From NCBI GenBank assembly GCA_946541575.1, contig CAMNJQ010000032.1, positions 1-32,409 of the forward strand: a DNA stretch of 32,409 bases, given 5' to 3'. The notes beneath the pieces were generated by a model, which saw only the letters and a program-made list of their open reading frames with translations, searched no databases and was not told the origin of the DNA. Within the stretch, counting starts at the first letter, position 1; each line of letters opens with the position of its first letter. The DNA is from an uncultured Clostridium sp. (GTDB lineage: Bacteria; Bacillota_I; Bacilli_A; RF39; UBA660). Shown here in pieces: positions 3,144 through 11,043 of this stretch. The position numbers and the translations under genes are program-made.

Positions 3144-4544
3144 CTACATCATTTCATATGTTGTTCCATCTTTACCATCTATTAATCTAATACCATCATC
3201 AAATAATTCCTGTCTAATCTTATCAGCTGTTGCAAAGTCTTTAGCTTTCTTAGCTTCATTTCTTTCTTCTATTTTCTTTAAAATCATAGATTCTGTTGCT
3301 TCATCAATTTTTTGTTCTTCGTCATCATCTATTAATCCAAGTGAAAGAACTTTATCAAAGTCTTCGATTAAGTATAGCTTTGTGAAATCTGATAGTTCAT
3401 CATCTTTTAATACATCAAATAGAACTGTTAACATTAATGATGTATTTAAATCATTTGAAATAGCATCTTTAAAATTATTTTTATAAAAATCCACTTTATC
3501 ATCATGTAAATCAGGAGTTCTATCCAACTTTTTTATTTTATTTTTTATTCTTTTATATAGTTTTTGAGCTTCATCTAATGATTCATATGTAAAAATTAAT
3601 TGTTTTCTATAATGGCTTTGCAAGCATAACAATCTATATGCTTTTGGATTATAGCCTTTTGATTCTAAAGTTGATACTGTTATAAAATCGCCATTAGACT
3701 TACTCATCTTTCCGTTTTTATCATTTAAATGCTCCACGTGTACCCAATAATTACACCATTTATGCCCTAGAAATGCCTCAGATTGAGCTATTTCATTGGT
3801 ATGGTGAGGAAATATATTATCTACTCCTCCGCAATGAATATCAAGGTACTCTCCTAAGTATTTATAAGACAAACCTGAACATTCAATATGCCATCCTGGA
3901 TATCCTACTCCCCATGGTGAATTCCATTTCATTTCTTGATTTGCAAATTTTGAGTCAGTAAACCATAGTCCAAAATCATTAGGATGTCTTTTATTTGTAT
4001 CTTCATTAACCGTTTCACGTACTCCAATTAACTGTTCATCTTGTGTTCTGCCAGATAATTGATAGTAATTATTTGCCTTTGAGATATCAAAATATATATT
4101 TCCATTTGATTTATATGCAAATCCTCTATCTAATAATCTTGTTATTATTTCAATATATGTATCTATATGTTTAGTTGCAGGAACCACTACTTTAGGTTTT
4201 CTAATATTTAGTTTTGCACAATCTTCAAAAAATGCTCTTTCATAAAATTCTGCAATTTCATAGGCAGACTTATGTTCTCTTTTTGCACTTTTTAACATTT
4301 TGTCTTCGCCATCATCAGAATCATTCTCTAAATGTCCAACATCTGTTATATTCATAACTCTTAATACATCATATCCAAGATATTCTAATCCTTTTTCTAA
4401 AACATCTTCAACAATATATGATCTTAAGTTTCCAATATGAGCATAGTGGTACACTGTTGGTCCACATGTATACATTCTTACAGTATTTGCTTCATTTGGA
4501 GTAAATGTTTCTATTTGTTTTGTTAATGTGTTATAAATTTTCAT
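3144..4544 (-). CDS. cysS: Cysteinyl-tRNA synthetase
   Basis: 466 aa, the normal length. It charges tRNA-Cys with cysteine in the cytoplasm. Class I signatures are present: TCGPTVYHYAHIGNLR (26-41, with zinc ligand C27 and the HIGH-type HIGN at 36-39), WHIECSGLS and HTNEIAQSEA supplying further zinc ligands, and the KMSKS loop (GKMSKSNGDF). The C-terminal DALR-type helical region and the EERNEAKKAKDFATADKIR block are also present. Start ATG at 4544 has a GAAGGTG site. The leader (4545-4660, minus strand) has no T-box core; it contains a 6-bp hairpin (4580-4599). The downstream partner is the degenerate YugP protein. Confidence 0.98.
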   Translation of the reverse strand: MKIYNTLTKQIETFTPNEANTVRMYTCGPTVYHYAHIGNLRSYIVEDVLEKGLEYLGYDVLRVMNITDVGHLENDSDDGEDKMLKSAKREHKSAYEIAEFYERAFFEDCAKLNIRKPKVVVPATKHIDTYIEIITRLLDRGFAYKSNGNIYFDISKANNYYQLSGRTQDEQLIGVRETVNEDTNKRHPNDFGLWFTDSKFANQEMKWNSPWGVGYPGWHIECSGLSYKYLGEYLDIHCGGVDNIFPHHTNEIAQSEAFLGHKWCNYWVHVEHLNDKNGKMSKSNGDFITVSTLESKGYNPKAYRLLCLQSHYRKQLIFTYESLDEAQKLYKRIKNKIKKLDRTPDLHDDKVDFYKNNFKDAISNDLNTSLMLTVLFDVLKDDELSDFTKLYLIEDFDKVLSLGLIDDDEEQKIDEATESMILKKIEERNEAKKAKDFATADKIRQELFDDGIRLIDGKDGTTYEMM

Positions 4545-4660
4545 GAATACACCTTCTTTGAATTTAATTTTATCATAAAACTCTTCATAAAAAAAGAGTG
4601 TTATAACTAAGTTTTTTGCGACTTATATTATAAATTATTCATATTATTTTAATATATTAA

Positions 4661-4692
4661 AAAAGATAAATCATAATCATGATTTATCTTTT
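4661..4692 (-). terminator. Terminator after surface protein 1
   Basis: A perfect 13-bp stem, AAAAGATAAATCA with its complement, 6-nt loop, and TTTTTTAATA following on the minus strand. It lies 12 nt past the stop of the gene at 4704. Confidence 0.9.
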
Positions 4693-4703
4693 AAATTTTT
4701 TGA

Positions 4704-6443
4704 TTAAATTGCAATTGTCCATGGGCTATTTTTTAATCCATTACCACCAGTTACATATACATTTGCTTTTAAAACTACTACTGGTCTTATACCATTTGTA
4801 AAGTTATTATTACCAGTCATTCTACCGTACTTTGAAACTGCCCACATAGTATTTGTACTTTTTGCTGATCCTAGATAATAGTGTGTTGTTATATTTAATA
4901 ATCCATCACTTGGTATAATCTCTTTAACATTTTGTCCATTAATGCATCCACCAGAAATATGCTCGCATGACATATTTGTAGCTGATTCAGCAAACTTTCC
5001 ATTAATATATTGTTTAGCTCTATTATTTAGCTCTGAAACAGCTTTTGATGATGTTTGATTGCTACTATGGAAATAGCATTCAGGTGTTCCAGCATGAACT
5101 AGTACGACTTTATTATTTGTAACAGATAATACACGCCATCCTTTTTTCGTAGTTCCAGTGCCATCACCTCTACACTCTATTCCATTGTTTTTTGAAACAC
5201 CATTTTGGGCTCCCCAAAAATAATTTGTTGATTTTGATTTATCCTCTTTAATTGTTTCATTCCAAGTTCCAGCATCATATGAAACATAATCCCCAACTTT
5301 TACTTTGGAGTTTAAATAAGTAACTGTCGGTTGTGTTGGTTGCGTTGGTTGTGTTGGTTGTGTTGGCTGTGTTGGTTGTGTTGGTTGCGTTGGTTGTGTT
5401 GGTTGCGTTGGTTGTGTTGGTTGTGTTGGTTGCGTTGGTTGTGTTGGTTGTGTTGGTTGTTGAGTTTTAGCTTTTTCAATTATTAAACTACAAGTTCCCT
5501 CATTTCCTGCTTTATCTTTTACATATCCAACGACTTTAGTTCTTCCCTCTACAGTTACTGTATATTTTTCTTGAGTATAATTCTTTTCATTCTCAGTTCC
5601 TATTCCTTTTGTAGCCACCCCTGAAGTTTCATCTTCTGCTTTAGATATTACTACAACTGGATTATCTGTGTATTGTCCTAAATTATTTAAACTTCCTTTT
5701 TCCACAGATAAAGAACATGTTGGTTTATCAGAATCTTTTTTAACTGTTATAGTACACTTTCCTTCAGTTCCATTTTCATCAATTACATATCCTATTAAAG
5801 TAGTTTCTTTATTTTCTGAAATCTTATACTTATCTATATTACCGCTTGGAGCTCTAACAATTTCGTCGTCTATGATTTCATTATTTACTTCTTCTATATA
5901 TATTTTCTCAAAACTTATCTCACTACTATTTGTTTTATATTCTTTAAAGCCAACTTCAATACTCTCCGAAACATACCAATCGTTATCTCCCAATTTACCA
6001 CTTGATACTTCTAGTTCACATTCAGGAGTACTTATATTAACTTCTATATTTAATGAACAAGTCCCTTTGTTTCCTGCTGCATCTTGAACATATCCATTTA
6101 AATTAAAAAGTCCTGATTTAAATATTCTAAAAACATCTGTATTTCTTGCGTTATCTGTTGTTCCTATTGTTTTTTTGACTATAGGATAATCATTTGATAT
6201 TGGATTAGCAGATTTAAATACTACTTCTACTGCTTGATAATATACTCCATCGTTTGAAGGCTGTACACCTCCATTAACTTCTAACTCGCAAGATAATTCA
6301 CCAGTAGCTACAGTTTTTGTCTTTTTTGAAAAAACGCGTGATGCTAAAAATATAAGCAATATTAATAAAATGCATGTGGAAATTCCTACTATTATAATTA
6401 ATCTTTTCCTTTTTTGTTTTATTTCGTCATCAGTGTCATACAT
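4704..6443 (-). CDS. Membrane-anchored Ig-like surface protein 1 with (PTQ)n linker
   Basis: 579 aa from ATG 6443 (the GTG 9 nt earlier is part of the ribosome site). Layout: acidic then basic cytoplasmic tail (1-14), one membrane helix (about 15-35), and an ectodomain predicted outside because KQKRKR precedes the helix. Three Ig-like repeats follow, each with a Cys pair expected to form a disulphide (C52/C129, C142/C230, C243/C318) and each ending in a GYVxDxxGxxG(T/K)C pattern. Then come a 14-unit Pro-Thr-Gln stalk (about 330-372) and a C-terminal domain (373-579) of the WRVL...GIRPVVVLK...GGNG type seen in many uncharacterised Firmicutes proteins (DUF6273-like; uncertain). No LPXTG or choline-binding motif is present. 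It is a paralogue of the next two genes; adhesion or sensing is a guess. Confidence 0.85.
5329..5454 (-). repeat. 9-bp minisatellite, 14 units, encoding the (PTQ)n stalk
   Basis: Fourteen head-to-tail units of GGTTGTGTT (plus strand). The variants are GGTTGCGTT (four units) and GGCTGTGTT (one unit); all are synonymous (Thr or Gln third positions). Length change by slippage would keep frame in steps of three residues. Confidence 0.97.
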
Positions 6444-6483
6444 AATTATCACTCTTTTCTAACGTTTTCGTATTATATATTAT

Positions 6484-6512
6484 ATTTTATCTTAGCATTG
6501 AAACTATGTCAA
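6484..6512 (-). promoter_or_regulatory. Promoter of surface protein 1
   Basis: Minus strand TTGACA (6507-6512), 17-nt spacer, TAAAAT (6484-6489). The same elements and flanks (AATAATTGACAT, GCTAAGATAAAATA) precede the second paralogue, and a slightly diverged form precedes the third. Confidence 0.85.
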
Positions 6513-6525
6513 TTATTCAAAAGAA

Positions 6526-6543
6526 AAAGAGCATGCGCTCTTT
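6526..6543 (-). terminator. Terminator after surface protein 2
   Basis: AAAGAGC / GCTCTTT stem with a 4-nt loop, then TTTCTTTT on the minus strand. The TAA stop of the gene at 6542 lies inside the stem. Confidence 0.85.
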
Positions 6544-8323
6544 AATATGTTGTCAATATCCACTTTCCATTTTTAAATCCAGTGGTTATAACATTTTTAT
6601 TAAGTGTTATAACGATTCTTATTCCTGCTTTCATATTAACTACCTTTTCTGGTATTCCAGTTGGGCTTATTGCCCACATTTCGGTATCACTAGCTCTACT
6701 TCCTAATATGTAATATCCATTAGTAATATGTATTGGCCTATTTGCTAGTGAGAACTTGCACCCTTCCACTCCAAAACTATTGCACGATAAAACATCGGCG
6801 GATACTGCATAGTTTTTGTTAATATAATTTTTTGCCTTTGATTTAATATCTGTCAATGTTGTCATAGATGATTTTTGGTGATCTACACATTCTGGGCTTC
6901 CTGCTGATACCAATATGACTTGCTTATTTAAATAATCAAAATCTAAAACTCGCCATCCACCTATAACAGTTGTATCAGACTCGTTACAAATTTGTCCTGT
7001 GTTTCTTCCACTTCCAGCATCATATGCAACATAGTCTCCAAATTTTACTTGTGTATAAAGTAAGTCTCCTTCTTTCACAATTAATTCAGGAGTTTCACAT
7101 TTTACTTTTACTCCATGAGAATTTTGAGCATATCCAATTATTTTATACTTTCCTTCATTTGTTATTACAAATTCATTTCTACCATTATAGTTTTCACTAT
7201 CTCCCATTCCATATGCTGTTGCATTTTTTGTAGTCATTGTTATAGATATTTTCTTTTCTCCTTTACTATTAGTTGGCATTAACACTATATTTTCTTTATC
7301 TAATTTATATGCTGAAGAAATATGTAACGTACAACTTAGCTCTCCATTATTTTGCATTGCACTTCCCGGCTCTGCTTTTACAACATCTATGCTACACTTT
7401 CCTTCATTTCCTGCATTATCTTTTACATAGCCATACACAGTTGTTTTTCCTACTGTTGTTACCGAATATGAATCTTCTGTATAATTATTTGTTATGCCGA
7501 TTCCTTTATTTGATATTCCTGATAAATTATCTTCTTCTTTTTCAAATCCAACCACAGGATTATCCATATATTTTCCACTAGAATCAGAGTTCCCTTTAAT
7601 CACACTTAGTGTACATTTTGGTGGAATACTATCTTTTTTAACAGTTATATTACATGTTGCTTGTTCTCCATTTGTGTCGACAATATATCCAGTCAACTTT
7701 GTTTCACCATCTTCGGAAACAATAAATTCATTTGAATTACTATGAGTTGATATATTTACTTGTTCTCCAGATTTTTCAATGAAATATTTAACTACTCCTG
7801 CACTTGCATTATTTGCATTTACGTTATCGAATGATACCACTACATCAGAATTATACCATCCTTTTTCTTTTTCTACTCCTTTTGCAACTTTTAATGTACA
7901 GACAGGATGAGTTAATTCCACTTCAACATCTAATTTACATGTTGCAGCATTTCCTTTTGAATCTTCAACAAAACCATATACTATATATTCTCCTGGTTTT
8001 GTTATTCTAAAGCTTTCAGAATTAGCACTTGAGTCTTCAATACCTATTGTTTGTTTAGTAAGTGATACTTTGTTTTTATCATAACTAATTTCTTTAAATC
8101 CTATTTCTATTTCTTCTTCATATATTCCCTCATTATTTGGAATAGCATTATTTAAAACTTCGAGAGTACAAGAGATTTTTTTATCTTTTGATGATGCTTT
8201 ATTCTCATTGCTTATCTTTACTAATAATATTAGTATTATTAATAAAATCAAGAATACAACTACACCAATTATCATATATAATAATCTTCTTTTTACTCTG
8301 GCATTGTCCTCATCACTATACAT
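6542..8323 (-). CDS. Membrane-anchored Ig-like surface protein 2 (no stalk)
   Basis: 593 aa from ATG 8323, chosen because MYSDEDNARVKRR lines up with the starts of both paralogues and sits after the same AAAAGAGTGAT leader; the ATG at 8347 would break this match. Layout: short cytoplasmic tail, membrane helix (about 14-36), three Ig-like repeats ending in GYVKDNAGNEGKCS-type blocks, then a fourth, more divergent Ig-like unit (LSCTLHIS ... GYAQNSHGVKVKC) in the place where protein 1 has its PTQ stalk, and the same C-terminal domain (VKFGDYVAYDAG ... GGWRVLDF ... AGIRIVITLNKNV). The product is predicted to be anchored in the membrane with its bulk outside. Function unknown. Confidence 0.85.
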   Translation of the reverse strand: MYSDEDNARVKRRLLYMIIGVVVFLILLIILILLVKISNENKASSKDKKISCTLEVLNNAIPNNEGIYEEEIEIGFKEISYDKNKVSLTKQTIGIEDSSANSESFRITKPGEYIVYGFVEDSKGNAATCKLDVEVELTHPVCTLKVAKGVEKEKGWYNSDVVVSFDNVNANNASAGVVKYFIEKSGEQVNISTHSNSNEFIVSEDGETKLTGYIVDTNGEQATCNITVKKDSIPPKCTLSVIKGNSDSSGKYMDNPVVGFEKEEDNLSGISNKGIGITNNYTEDSYSVTTVGKTTVYGYVKDNAGNEGKCSIDVVKAEPGSAMQNNGELSCTLHISSAYKLDKENIVLMPTNSKGEKKISITMTTKNATAYGMGDSENYNGRNEFVITNEGKYKIIGYAQNSHGVKVKCETPELIVKEGDLLYTQVKFGDYVAYDAGSGRNTGQICNESDTTVIGGWRVLDFDYLNKQVILVSAGSPECVDHQKSSMTTLTDIKSKAKNYINKNYAVSADVLSCNSFGVEGCKFSLANRPIHITNGYYILGSRASDTEMWAISPTGIPEKVVNMKAGIRIVITLNKNVITTGFKNGKWILTTY

Positions 8324-8359
8324 ATTAATCACTCTTTTCCCTAGCATCCCTTTTATTAT

Positions 8360-8388
8360 ATTTTATCTTAGCAATAACACGATGTCAA
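8360..8388 (-). promoter_or_regulatory. Promoter of surface protein 2
   Basis: Minus strand TTGACA (8383-8388), 17-nt spacer ending GCTAAGA, TAAAAT (8360-8365); nearly the same as the promoter at 6484-6512. Confidence 0.85.
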
Positions 8389-8404
8389 TTATTCAAAATA
8401 GAAA

Positions 8405-8420
8405 AAGAGCTTGCGCTCTT
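8405..8420 (-). terminator. Terminator after surface protein 3
   Basis: AAGAGC / GCTCTT stem with a 4-nt loop, then TTTTTCTATTTTG on the minus strand. The stop codon of the gene at 8419 overlaps the stem, as in the terminator at 6526-6543. Confidence 0.8.
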
Positions 8421-10176
8421 AATATCTTGTAATCTTATATGGATTACTGCTTGTTCCATTACCACCTGTAGTAACAACTTTTTCATTCAATGTTACAATT
8501 ATCTTTATTCCTGCAGTCACATTTGTTACTGCCTCTGGATTTCCATCAGGATGTATTACATATACTTTGTTATTATCCGCTTTAGATGCAGCAAAGTAAT
8601 TATCACTTTGAACAAGAAGTCGGTTATTTGGCAACAAATTATATGCACAACTAGCTAAGTCTGAACAAGTTAATGATCTTACAGAATCAGCATATGTTTT
8701 GTTAAAATGCTTATTTGCTTTTGAATTAATATCATTAATTGTAGCAGTGGCATCTGTTTTATGTGTTACTTTTTCAGGGCTTTCAGCTGAAAGTAATATA
8801 ACATTTTTGCCATTTACTGCATATACTATCCATTTAGTATTTTTACCAGCTTCATATTCAACAAAATCGCCTTTATTTACTTTATTAAATAACCATTCTC
8901 CTTTTTTTACTACATAATATGTTTCTGGTTCTGTAATACATCTTTGGGTTGCATTTTTTGCATATCCTCTAAATCTATATGTACCTTCTTTATCTATTAC
9001 ATACTCTCTTTGTCCATTATATGTTTCTGTTTCCCCAATACCATATGCTGTTGCATTTTCTACACTCAAAGTAAATACTATCTTTGAATTTGGAGGTAGA
9101 AGAATTGTGTTTGAATCAAGTAAATATGCTTCATTTAGAGTTGAAAGATTACATCTAAGAGTACCTACTGGTGTTGGTGGAGTTGGTGGTGTTGGTGGTG
9201 TTGGTGGTGTTGGTTGTCCTCCTTGTGATGCTTTAGTTACTGATATGCTACAAGTTCCTTCATTACCAGCTTCATCTTTGACATATCCATTTACTGTTAT
9301 AGTACCCTCTGTACTTACAGTAAATGAATCATTTGTATAATTTTTGCTTGTCCCAATTCCTTTTTCTTTAATTCCAGAAATTTCATCTTTAGCATCTACA
9401 AATCCTATTTTTGGATTATCTGTATATTGTCCATTTGAATCTGTTGTTCCTTCTATAACTTTTAGTGTGCATGATGGTTTTGTATTATCTTTTTTTATTA
9501 CAATATTACAACTTCCTTGTGTGCCTGCTGAATCAACAATATATCCAGTTAAACTTGTTTCTTTATTATCACTTACTACAAATTTATCTGAATCAGCATG
9601 TGCATTTATGTCAATTGCAGTACTTGATTTTTCTATAAAATGTTTTACCACTGTAGTATTAGGATTATTTGTATTACTATCTTTAAATGATACTACTACA
9701 TCTGATTTATACCATCCGTTTTCTCCAGCTACTCCTTCAGTAACATCTAATTCACAAGTTGGATAATTTAACTCTACTATTAAATCTAAGTCACATGTAG
9801 CTTCATTTCCATTAGAATCTTGAAGATAGCCATGCATTTTGTAATTTCCTGACTTTGTAATTTTAAATGTTTCTGTATTTCTAGGCGAATCAGCGGTTCC
9901 TATGGTCTGCTTAATTAGTGAAGAGTTTTTATTATCATAATTGATTTCTGCAAATCCGATCTCCAATTCTTCCCTATAGATACCATTTTCATCTGGTTTA
10001 GAATCATTCATTACTGTTATTTTACAAGACAAATCATTACTTTTTCCTGAAGATCCTTTGTTCCACATTCTTATTAATAAAAACAAAATAATTAATACAA
10101 TTAAGAATACGACAATTCCTATTATTATATATAGTCTTCTTCTTTTTCTGCTTATTTCTTCACTATCATCATACAT
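8419..10176 (-). CDS. Membrane-anchored Ig-like surface protein 3 with (PPT)n linker
   Basis: 585 aa, ATG 10176 preceded by AGGAGTGATTACA. Layout: tail MYDDSEEISRKRRR, membrane helix (about 15-36), three Ig-like repeats (for example [16 protein letters not shown]), a short Pro-Pro-Thr linker, a fourth Ig-like unit (LRCNLST ... GYAKNATQRC) and the shared C-terminal domain (VNKGDFVEYEAG ... NVILLSAESPE ... AGIKIIVTLNEKVVTTGGNG). It combines the stalk idea of protein 1 with the fourth Ig-like unit of protein 2, so the three genes look like one family that has gained and lost modules. The C-terminal domain lacks the GWRVL wording of the others (TKWIVYAV instead). Function unknown. Confidence 0.85.
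   Translation of the reverse strand: MYDDSEEISRKRRRLYIIIGIVVFLIVLIILFLLIRMWNKGSSGKSNDLSCKITVMNDSKPDENGIYREELEIGFAEINYDNKNSSLIKQTIGTADSPRNTETFKITKSGNYKMHGYLQDSNGNEATCDLDLIVELNYPTCELDVTEGVAGENGWYKSDVVVSFKDSNTNNPNTTVVKHFIEKSSTAIDINAHADSDKFVVSDNKETSLTGYIVDSAGTQGSCNIVIKKDNTKPSCTLKVIEGTTDSNGQYTDNPKIGFVDAKDEISGIKEKGIGTSKNYTNDSFTVSTEGTITVNGYVKDEAGNEGTCSISVTKASQGGQPTPPTPPTPPTPPTPVGTLRCNLSTLNEAYLLDSNTILLPPNSKIVFTLSVENATAYGIGETETYNGQREYVIDKEGTYRFRGYAKNATQRCITEPETYYVVKKGEWLFNKVNKGDFVEYEAGKNTKWIVYAVNGKNVILLSAESPEKVTHKTDATATINDINSKANKHFNKTYADSVRSLTCSDLASCAYNLLPNNRLLVQSDNYFAASKADNNKVYVIHPDGNPEAVTNVTAGIKIIVTLNEKVVTTGGNGTSSNPYKITRY
9170..9214 (-). repeat. 9-bp repeat, 5 units, encoding the (PPT)n linker
   Basis: Five units of GGTGTTGGT with one synonymous variant (GGAGTTGGT). 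It is related in sequence to the 14-unit array at 5329-5454, and like it can change length without a frameshift. Confidence 0.92.
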
Positions 10177-10208
10177 TTGTAATCACTCCTATTATTACTT
10201 ATAAATCT

Positions 10209-10237
10209 ATTTTAGCTTACTAATTTTATGATGTCAA
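10209..10237 (-). promoter_or_regulatory. Promoter of surface protein 3
   Basis: Minus strand TTGACA (10232-10237), 17-nt spacer, TAAAAT (10209-10214), with the same AATAATTGACAT flank as the promoters of the two paralogues. Confidence 0.82.
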
Positions 10238-10254
10238 TTATTACAACGAATTAT

Positions 10255-10938
10255 TTATTTACTTTTTCTATTACCATATATCAAAATTAATCTTAAAATC
10301 TGAATCAATGTAGTTGCAACACTTGCAACATAAGTAAGTGCCGCTGCTGTAAGAACTATTTTGCCATCGGATAGTTCAGAATTACTAAACATTTCTGATT
10401 TTTTTAATTCATTAATTCCTCTTTTAGAAGCATTAAATTCTACTGGTAAAGTTACAACTTGAAAAAATAAAATAATTACTTCTGCTATAACTCCAAGCCA
10501 TATTAATCCAATCGCGCTTAATATGCTTCCTAAAATAATTGCTAAATATCCTGCAGTTGAACAAAAATTTACAATTGGAACTAAACTACTTCTAATTCTT
10601 AAAAATGTGTAACCATCTTTATCTTGTATAGCATGTCCACATTCATGACATGCAACTGATACTGCTGCTATTGAACTCTTATTATAATTATCGCTAGAAA
10701 GACGAATTACTTTATTTTTAGGGTCATAATGATCTGATAGATATCCATTTGTTTCCACAACTTTTATATGTCCTAATCCATTTGTATCTAAAATCTTTCT
10801 TGCGGCATCCTTACCTAAAATTCTATTATTATTCATTATTTTTGAATATTTACTATAGCTGCTACTTATAAATGCTTGTGCTCCTAATGTTATTAATAAA
10901 GATATTATTGTAAGACCATAAACTATAAATATTTCCAT
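10255..10938 (-). CDS. YugP-type membrane zinc metallopeptidase
   Basis: 227 aa from ATG 10938, which has an AGAGGA site; the longer reading from 11001 has none. An N-terminal membrane helix (about 3-22) is followed by the peptidase core with the zinc motif ACHECGHAIQ (H98, E99, H102) and a likely third ligand E167 in LPVEFNAS. Three more hydrophobic segments follow (about 119-165 and 195-220). Length and order match the neutral zinc peptidase family (YugP, Zn_peptidase_2) of Bacillota, whose substrates are not well known. It lies upstream of surface protein 3 with no clear terminator between. Its inactive paralogue is at 2471-3136. Confidence 0.88.
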   Translation of the reverse strand: MEIFIVYGLTIISLLITLGAQAFISSSYSKYSKIMNNNRILGKDAARKILDTNGLGHIKVVETNGYLSDHYDPKNKVIRLSSDNYNKSSIAAVSVACHECGHAIQDKDGYTFLRIRSSLVPIVNFCSTAGYLAIILGSILSAIGLIWLGVIAEVIILFFQVVTLPVEFNASKRGINELKKSEMFSNSELSDGKIVLTAAALTYVASVATTLIQILRLILIYGNRKSK

Positions 10939-11043
10939 AAAATCCTCTTTTCTTATATATATTATAATACGTAAATTAATTTTATTTAATTTTTTTCTCA
11001 ATTAAAATTTTTAAAATAATGATATACTACTAATGAAAGGATA

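What the first reader, a model, noticed from the sequence alone, without database searches (positions are those of the whole stretch)
4661..10237. Three tandem Ig-like surface proteins with near-identical promoters and shuffled modules
The promoters (TTGACA-17-TAAAAT, with shared flanks), leaders (AAAAGAGTGAT), terminators of two of them, and protein layouts show tandem duplication. Modules differ: protein 1 has three Ig-like units and a PTQ stalk; protein 2 has four units and no stalk; protein 3 has four units with a PPT linker. All share a type-II orientation (N-terminal anchor, C-terminal domain outside) and no sortase signal, unlike classical adhesins. The repeated order suggests a variable surface set that may recombine.
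Basis: partly seen in the sequence, partly recalled or inferred. Interest (0 to 1): 0.65.

Follow-up and report, generated by a model that had tools for sequence, protein, structure and literature searches.

The report
Membrane-anchored Ig-stalk proteins with lectin-fold tip
These are three neighbouring copies of a surface protein that every sequenced relative carries in at least one copy; it is probably a membrane-anchored arm of immunoglobulin-like beads ending in a lectin-like binding tip, and the tip belongs to the same domain family that a related bacterium hypermutates on purpose, although here it is left un-mutated.

Summary
The interpretation "shuffled modules / recombining variable set" is not supported. 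All 12 genomes of the genus carry the gene (1 copy in ten, 2 in one, 3 here). Module order is constant: anchor, Ig1-3, low-complexity linker, Ig4, C-terminal domain. The only module-level departure is loss of Ig4 in TIG1. The copies share no exact DNA run above 20 nt, and N- and C-terminal trees agree. The promoter is conserved across species. The C-terminal domain has no Pfam or NCBIfam match. Its confident model is closest to the C-type-lectin-like DUF6273 domain of Thomasclavelia IgA peptidase (Z 10.7). Its nearest sequence relatives (35-42%) are a family of at least 25 genes in another genus, one of which is the target of a diversity-generating retroelement (DGR; TR/VR: 14 mismatches, all at template adenines). 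The window's genome has no detectable DGR. Best reading: fixed-specificity adhesins, built like invasin/intimin, with a DGR-type lectin tip. Ligand unknown. New variant of a known kind.

The parts
8419..10176 (-). TIG3 CDS, 585 aa: basic cytoplasmic tail, TM, Ig1-3, PPT linker, Ig4, C-type-lectin-like domain (reduced: lacks the W..GGY..SKN..C insert)
   Evidence: ORF; genus homologues E down to 1e-103; AlphaFold model pLDDT 81.8
6542..8323 (-). TIG2 CDS, 593 aa, four Ig-like units with a very short linker, partly reduced C-terminal domain
   Evidence: ORF; 49% identical to TIG3; HYR Pfam hit 31.5 bits, cut-off 21.7
4704..6443 (-). TIG1 CDS, 579 aa, Ig1-3, PTQ stalk in place of Ig4, full-length C-terminal domain; the copy most like the single-copy orthologs of other species
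   Evidence: ORF; up to 49% identity to orthologs; groups with them in the tree; HYR 23.5 bits, cut-off 21.7
4707..5306 (-). TIG1 C-terminal C-type-lectin-like domain (200 aa)
   Evidence: model pLDDT 92.7, pTM 0.90; best fold match 9qa6 IgAse residues 35-304, Z 10.7, rmsd 3.0, 153 aligned
6545..7051 (-). TIG2 C-terminal domain
   Evidence: alignment A3
8422..8883 (-). TIG3 C-terminal domain
   Evidence: alignment A3
5325..5460 (-). PTQ repeat stalk of TIG1, 15 x 9 bp
   Evidence: TRF
9163..9231 (-). PPT-rich linker of TIG3 between Ig3 and Ig4
   Evidence: TRF, low pLDDT 320-337
10209..10237 (-). promoter of TIG3, TTGACA-17-TAAAAT
   Evidence: conserved in orthologs
8360..8388 (-). promoter of TIG2
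6484..6512 (-). promoter of TIG1
8405..8420 (-). terminator hairpin after TIG3 (overlaps its stop codon)
6526..6543 (-). terminator hairpin after TIG2
4660..4693 (-). A+T-rich inverted repeat with T tail after TIG1, probable terminator
   Evidence: sequence read directly; not scored by the scan because it has few G-C pairs

Best explanation
TIG1-3 are paralogous type II (N-in, C-out) membrane proteins. A short basic cytoplasmic tail (MYDxEEEIKRKRR) and one uncleaved TM segment anchor each protein. Three or four Ig/HYR-like units, each with a Cys near both ends, and a low-complexity hinge form a stalk. A C-terminal C-type-lectin-like domain of the DUF6273/DGR-target kind is presented at the tip and binds a ligand, probably a glycan or protein of the gut surface, of diet or of another microbe. 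In this genome the tip is encoded by ordinary genes without a diversity-generating retroelement, so binding specificity is germ-line fixed. Diversity comes instead from gene duplication and ordinary divergence, with each copy transcribed separately from a conserved strong promoter. Shown: paralogy, architecture, genus-wide conservation, promoter conservation, homology to DGR-target domains, predicted fold, no detectable DGR here. Inferred: surface exposure, disulphides, ligand binding, adhesion.
For: Present in 12 of 12 genomes of the genus, in the cysS / Zn-peptidase / NtdP neighbourhood wherever the contig is long enough. Constant architecture and conserved promoter. HYR Pfam hits over cut-off for TIG1 and TIG2, TIG3 just below; Ig-chain matches for the full-length model. 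C-terminal domain model pLDDT 92.7, with IgAse DUF6273/CTLD Z 10.7, Legionella Lcl CTLD Z 6.8 and many C-type lectins below. Sequence homology to a DGR-target domain in the same bacterial family: E 5e-54 for the target itself, 35-42% identity to TIG1 across most of the G145 set. That DGR has RT, Avd and a TR/VR pair with 14 of 14 mismatches at template A. No DGR RT or Avd in the window genome: its one RVT_1 hit is a retron RT. TR-A columns in the TIG orthologs are only mildly diverse: 0.67 vs 0.52 elsewhere, against 0.83 vs 0.43 in the DGR-bearing genome.
Against: No ligand, localisation or expression data. The C-type-lectin assignment is by fold; no sequence search of Pfam, NCBIfam or PDB gives it. 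The core single-copy status and synteny also fit a housekeeping envelope role. TIG3's tip has lost an insert and several cysteines, so not all three need bind. The genome is 93.6% complete in 77 contigs, so a DGR could lie in a gap.
Confidence: 0.68

Rival explanations
1. One reading: a variable surface set whose modules are shuffled by recombination between tandem copies, giving strain-to-strain antigenic variation.
For: Tandem copies; near-identical intergenic terminator-promoter segments (54 nt, 87% between the TIG1 and TIG2 promoters); copy number 1-3 across species; TIG1 lacks Ig4.
Against: Module order constant in 15 proteins; N- and C-terminal trees agree on the TIG2+TIG3 pair and on TIG1 lying with the orthologs; longest exact DNA run between copies is 20 nt, in the promoter, and coding blocks are 37-72% identical.
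Confidence: 0.08
2. The TIG genes are targets of a DGR that was lost from the assembly or acts in other strains, so the tip is hypervariable within the species.
For: The C-terminal domain is homologous to a DGR target; DGRs with adenine-specific TR/VR pairs occur in the same genus, at other target genes; TR-A columns are slightly more variable than the rest in TIG orthologs.
Against: No DGR RT or Avd in a 93.6% complete genome; no TR-like DNA for the TIG1 domain elsewhere in the genome; VR-equivalent residues nearly identical among close orthologs (e.g. G006/G010/G011); genus DGR loci show no convincing TR match to TIG.
Confidence: 0.07
3. A housekeeping envelope component (wall or polysaccharide organisation, sensing, or scaffold), not an adhesin; the lectin-fold domain holds wall glycan or a partner protein of the same cell.
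For: Core gene of the genus with conserved neighbourhood and strong conserved promoter; flanked by two membrane Zn-peptidase paralogs (PF04298); E. coli YeeJ, of the intimin-like inverse autotransporter class, is reported to bind peptidoglycan (PMC5595812, title as listed).
Against: Fast sequence divergence (33-49% identity between window copies and orthologs within a genus), variable linkers and copy-number change are more typical of outward-facing binding proteins.
Confidence: 0.15

Closest known systems
DGR variable proteins with a C-type-lectin-fold variable domain (Mtd, TvpA, TaqVP; DUF6273 targets of Faecalibacterium prophages, PMC11792537; survey PMC8144416)
   Same: Homologous C-terminal domain in a relative carries an adenine-mutagenised VR at its C-terminal end, as reported for DUF6273 targets; N-terminal anchor and stalk, C-terminal variable-type tip
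   Different: No detectable DGR in the window genome and no strong hypervariability signature at the VR-equivalent residues
N-terminal C-type-lectin-like (DUF6273) domain of Thomasclavelia ramosa IgA peptidase (PDB 9qa6; PMC12237041, PMC12402451)
   Same: Best structural match, Z 10.7 over 153 residues
   Different: There it is an N-terminal accessory domain of a peptidase; here it is the C-terminal tip of an Ig stalk and no peptidase domain is present; about 18% identity
Intimin / invasin (inverse autotransporters; PMC7718877)
   Same: Anchor, chain of bacterial Ig-like domains, C-terminal lectin-type binding domain at the tip
   Different: Outer-membrane beta-barrel anchor and type Ve export there; a single N-terminal TM helix here; no sequence relationship shown
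Legionella collagen-like protein Lcl (PDB 8q4e; PMC11162425)
   Same: Stalk plus C-terminal domain that matches the TIG tip by fold (Z 6.8); Lcl binds host glycosaminoglycans
   Different: Collagen-like stalk, 12% identity, ligand of TIG unknown

Membership tests
DGR target (variable protein) | TR elsewhere in the genome matching the target with mismatches at template adenines | tested here: not met
   DNA search of own genome with the TIG1 domain found no TR-like copy; 93.6% complete draft
DGR target (variable protein) | DGR reverse transcriptase and Avd in the genome | tested here: not met
   Only RVT_1 hit is retron-type; no PF05635 hit
DGR target (variable protein) | C-type-lectin-fold domain homologous to a VR-bearing domain | tested here: met
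   35-42% identity to most of the DGR-bearing family of G145, including the target itself; fold
Pfam DUF6273 (PF19789) | Score over the curated cut-off | tested here: not met
   Scan of 15 domains and whole-genome search: TIG genes not hit, although other loci of the same genome are; two G145 loci overlapping homologues of the tip family hit weakly, E 0.005-0.006
Pfam DUF6273 (PF19789) | Same fold as a structurally solved DUF6273 domain | tested here: met
   9qa6 residues 35-304, Z 10.7, rmsd 3.0; domain called DUF6273 in PMC12402451
[quoted passage not shown]
   pLDDT 92.7; nearly all listed matches are CTLDs, though most at Z 5-7, which alone would be weak
HYR / Ig-like repeat protein | Pfam HYR over cut-off | tested here: met
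   TIG1 23.5 and TIG2 31.5 bits against 21.7; TIG3 19.1, just below
Sortase-anchored surface protein | C-terminal LPxTG-like sorting signal | tested here: not met
   No motif, no C-terminal hydrophobic segment; sortases do exist in the genome
Intimin/invasin family | N-terminal inverse-autotransporter beta-barrel | tested here: not met
   Single TM helix only; analogy of layout only
Adhesin | Demonstrated ligand binding | not testable with these tools
   No experimental data

The most novel reading that the evidence does not exclude
A conserved, un-mutated core adhesin family and a DGR-diversified multigene family of the same lectin-fold domain (at least 25 members and a DGR in one 1.2 Mb genome) coexist within one uncultured Bacilli family, so that domains which retroelements hypermutate arose from, or decayed to, ordinary fixed surface receptors. 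The TIG genes are then the fixed counterpart of an expanded, retroelement-diversified receptor repertoire.
Probability: 0.4. Interest if true: 0.6.

Novelty: new variant of a known kind. Interest (0 to 1): 0.42.

Why it matters
It gives a sequence-defined family of lectin-tipped Ig-stalk proteins in an uncultured gut lineage. It also offers a natural comparison: the same domain under retroelement hypermutation in one genus and under ordinary constraint in another. That comparison can show which tip residues define binding and how a DGR target is gained or lost. For the scan, it turns an apparent 'recombining cassette' into a conserved core gene with local duplications.

Tried and rejected
Module shuffling: rejected. 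Recent duplication or gene conversion: no exact tract above 20 nt between copies. DGR in the window genome: looked for RT, Avd and a TR; the single RT is retron type III-A-like. Named family for the C-terminal domain: Pfam and NCBIfam scans of all 15 members at E up to 10 gave only unrelated single hits; a profile search of PDB sequences gave nothing. Phage origin: 84 pattern hits in viral contigs, none confirmed as a relative; in predicted viral structures the matches are weak and include several DUF6273-annotated phage proteins. In the full-length Foldseek run the listed rows are Ig- or cadherin-like chains matched over the stalk, so the tip was modelled and searched alone.
Full report
What is there. 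Three minus-strand ORFs occupy 4704-10176, between a PF04298 membrane Zn-peptidase (10255-11001) and cysS (3144-4544). I call them TIG3 (first transcribed), TIG2 and TIG1. The conserved MY[DS] start codons put the likely starts at 10176, 8323 and 6443. Each has its own sigma-70-like promoter, TTGACA-17-TAAAAT. The extended pattern ATTGACAT-N16-TAAAATA has exactly three perfect matches in the 1.6 Mb genome, these three. TIG3 and TIG2 are followed by near-identical GAGC..GCTC hairpins with T runs and TIG1 by an A+T-rich one (read). So the genes look like three separate transcription units. The 'leader' AAAAGAGTGAT is the ribosome-binding region.

The gene family. Searching the whole genus with TIG3 finds the N-terminal part of the same protein in all 12 genomes: one copy in ten, two in G005, three here. 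In seven of the eleven relatives it is directly upstream of cysS. In two it lies in the same neighbourhood, with a Zn-peptidase paralog and NtdP but without cysS next to it. In two the contig ends close by on the downstream side, where cysS would be. The alignment of all 15 proteins shows one fixed order: basic tail MYDxEEEIKRKRR, one TM segment, Ig1, Ig2, Ig3, a low-complexity linker that differs in every species (PTP, GGSQ, PTQ, PPT), Ig4, C-terminal domain. TIG1 is the only member without Ig4; a 15-copy 9-bp PTQ array stands in its place. TIG2 and TIG3 keep Ig4 but have a reduced C-terminal domain.

Duplication and recombination. TIG2 and TIG3 form a pair with strong support and TIG1 lies with the single-copy orthologs; trees of the N-terminal part and of the C-terminal domain agree. 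Copies are 36-49% identical. The longest exact DNA match between copies is 20 nt, in the promoter, and coding blocks are 37-72% identical. This speaks against recent recombination or domain swapping. The promoter is kept in single-copy orthologs of other species: TTGACA in all 15 genes and TAAAAT in all but one, where it is TACAAT. Promoter similarity therefore reflects constraint as much as duplication. Variation between strains of one species could not be tested.

The stalk. Pfam HYR is over its cut-off in TIG1 and TIG2 and just below in TIG3. The full-length model (pLDDT 81.8) shows a helix followed by beta-sandwich units, and Foldseek returns Ig-chain proteins. Ig1-3 each have one invariant or nearly invariant Cys near the start and one near the end, which would suit a disulphide (inference).

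The tip. The C-terminal domain (TIG1 4707-5306) has no credible match in Pfam or NCBIfam or in PDB sequences. With 35 homologues its model is confident (pLDDT 92.7, pTM 0.90). The best solved match is the N-terminal domain of Thomasclavelia ramosa IgA peptidase (9qa6 residues 35-304, Z 10.7, rmsd 3.0, 153 residues; Foldseek E 1.4e-4), well above the next rows: Legionella Lcl C-terminal domain Z 6.8, then snake, mammalian and sea-cucumber C-type lectins at Z 5-6.4. The literature calls that IgAse domain C-type-lectin-like (PMC12237041) and DUF6273 (PMC12402451). It hits other loci of the same genome strongly (E 1.6e-19, 9e-14) and two G145 loci of the tip family weakly (E 0.005-0.006).

The DGR link. 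In a family-wide search the tip domain has its closest relatives in G145, another genus. There at least 25 ORFs, typically 260-300 aa, carry the domain (17 listed, which was capped, plus 8 more), with an N-terminal TM segment and a coiled-coil-like or Ig-like spacer in several of those read in full. One of these ORFs (L095:4982-5890) is followed by a MutS-N-like ORF, an Avd homologue (NF033474, E 2e-12, below the curated cut-off) and an RT. A 100-nt template repeat between the Avd ORF and the RT matches the 3' end of the target with 14 mismatches, all at template adenines. This is a textbook DGR. Its VR aligns with the TIG1 segment [33 protein letters not shown]. Reports that VRs map to the C-terminus of DUF6273 in Faecalibacterium prophages (PMC11792537), and that DGR VR regions with annotation adopt C-type-lectin folds (PMC8144416), fit this.

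Is TIG itself a DGR target? The evidence says no, for this genome. The only RVT_1 hit in G000 is a retron III-A-like RT, there is no Avd-family hit, and no TR-like copy of the TIG1 domain (other hits are about 50 nt or shorter). Columns that are adenine codons in the G145 template have mean diversity 0.83 against 0.43 elsewhere among G145 paralogs (0 of 20,000 permutations). Among TIG orthologs of different species the contrast is 0.67 against 0.52 (193 of 20,000), a mild effect expected for exposed binding loops. The two sets differ in kind (paralogs in one genome, orthologs between species), so this comparison is supporting, not decisive. DGRs do occur in the genus, with 14 of 14 and 16 of 16 mismatches at template adenines, but at other target genes, and their loci show no convincing TR match to the TIG gene.

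Function. The layout (anchor, Ig chain, terminal lectin-type domain) parallels intimin/invasin (PMC7718877) and, with another stalk, Legionella Lcl, which binds glycosaminoglycans (PMC11162425). I therefore favour a surface binding protein with a fixed specificity per copy. Surface exposure, ligand and adhesion are inferred. The main rival is an envelope role, given the core status and conserved neighbourhood. Sortases exist in the genome, so a membrane anchor rather than a sortase signal appears to be this family's own solution.

Verdict. The proteins are a new variant of a known kind: Ig-stalk, lectin-fold-tipped surface proteins with a DGR-type tip but no detectable DGR.

Noticed in passing
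L095 (G145:C1:50000-64000), L096, L108-L112: One 1.2 Mb genome of another genus holds at least 25 copies of the tip domain and a complete DGR (target, MutS-N-like ORF, Avd, TR, RT) with 14 of 14 mismatches at template adenines: an unusually large receptor repertoire around one retroelement.
   Followed up: partly
L100:6307-10559 (G006:C3): A DGR in the same genus whose neighbouring target ORF begins with a type IV prepilin-like N-terminus; TR/VR 142 nt, 14 of 14 mismatches at template adenines. A DGR-diversified pilin-like protein.
   Followed up: partly
L099:4487-8392 (G009:C31): Another DGR of the genus, TR/VR 150 nt with 16 of 16 mismatches at template adenines; 515-aa target with a hydrophobic N-terminus.
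   Followed up: partly
L097:8042-9097 (G000:C56): The window genome's only detected reverse transcriptase is a retron RT of type III-A by PADLOC (E 2e-105).
   Followed up: no
L102:7641-9419 (G000:C51): Prepilin-like N-terminus joined to a DUF6273-type C-terminal region in the window's own genome.
   Followed up: no
L018-L032: A second genus-wide family (mostly 760-980 aa) with several units closely similar to Ig2-Ig3 of TIG but apparently without the lectin-fold tip.
   Followed up: no
window:11044-12567 (+): 507-aa protein with hydrophobic N- and C-terminal segments next to the TIG cluster, no credible Pfam or NCBIfam match; not seen at the corresponding place in the relatives read.
   Followed up: no
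window:2471-3136 and 10255-11001 (-): Two paralogous PF04298 membrane Zn-peptidases flank the TIG/cysS block; paralogs lie near TIG in most relatives.
   Followed up: partly
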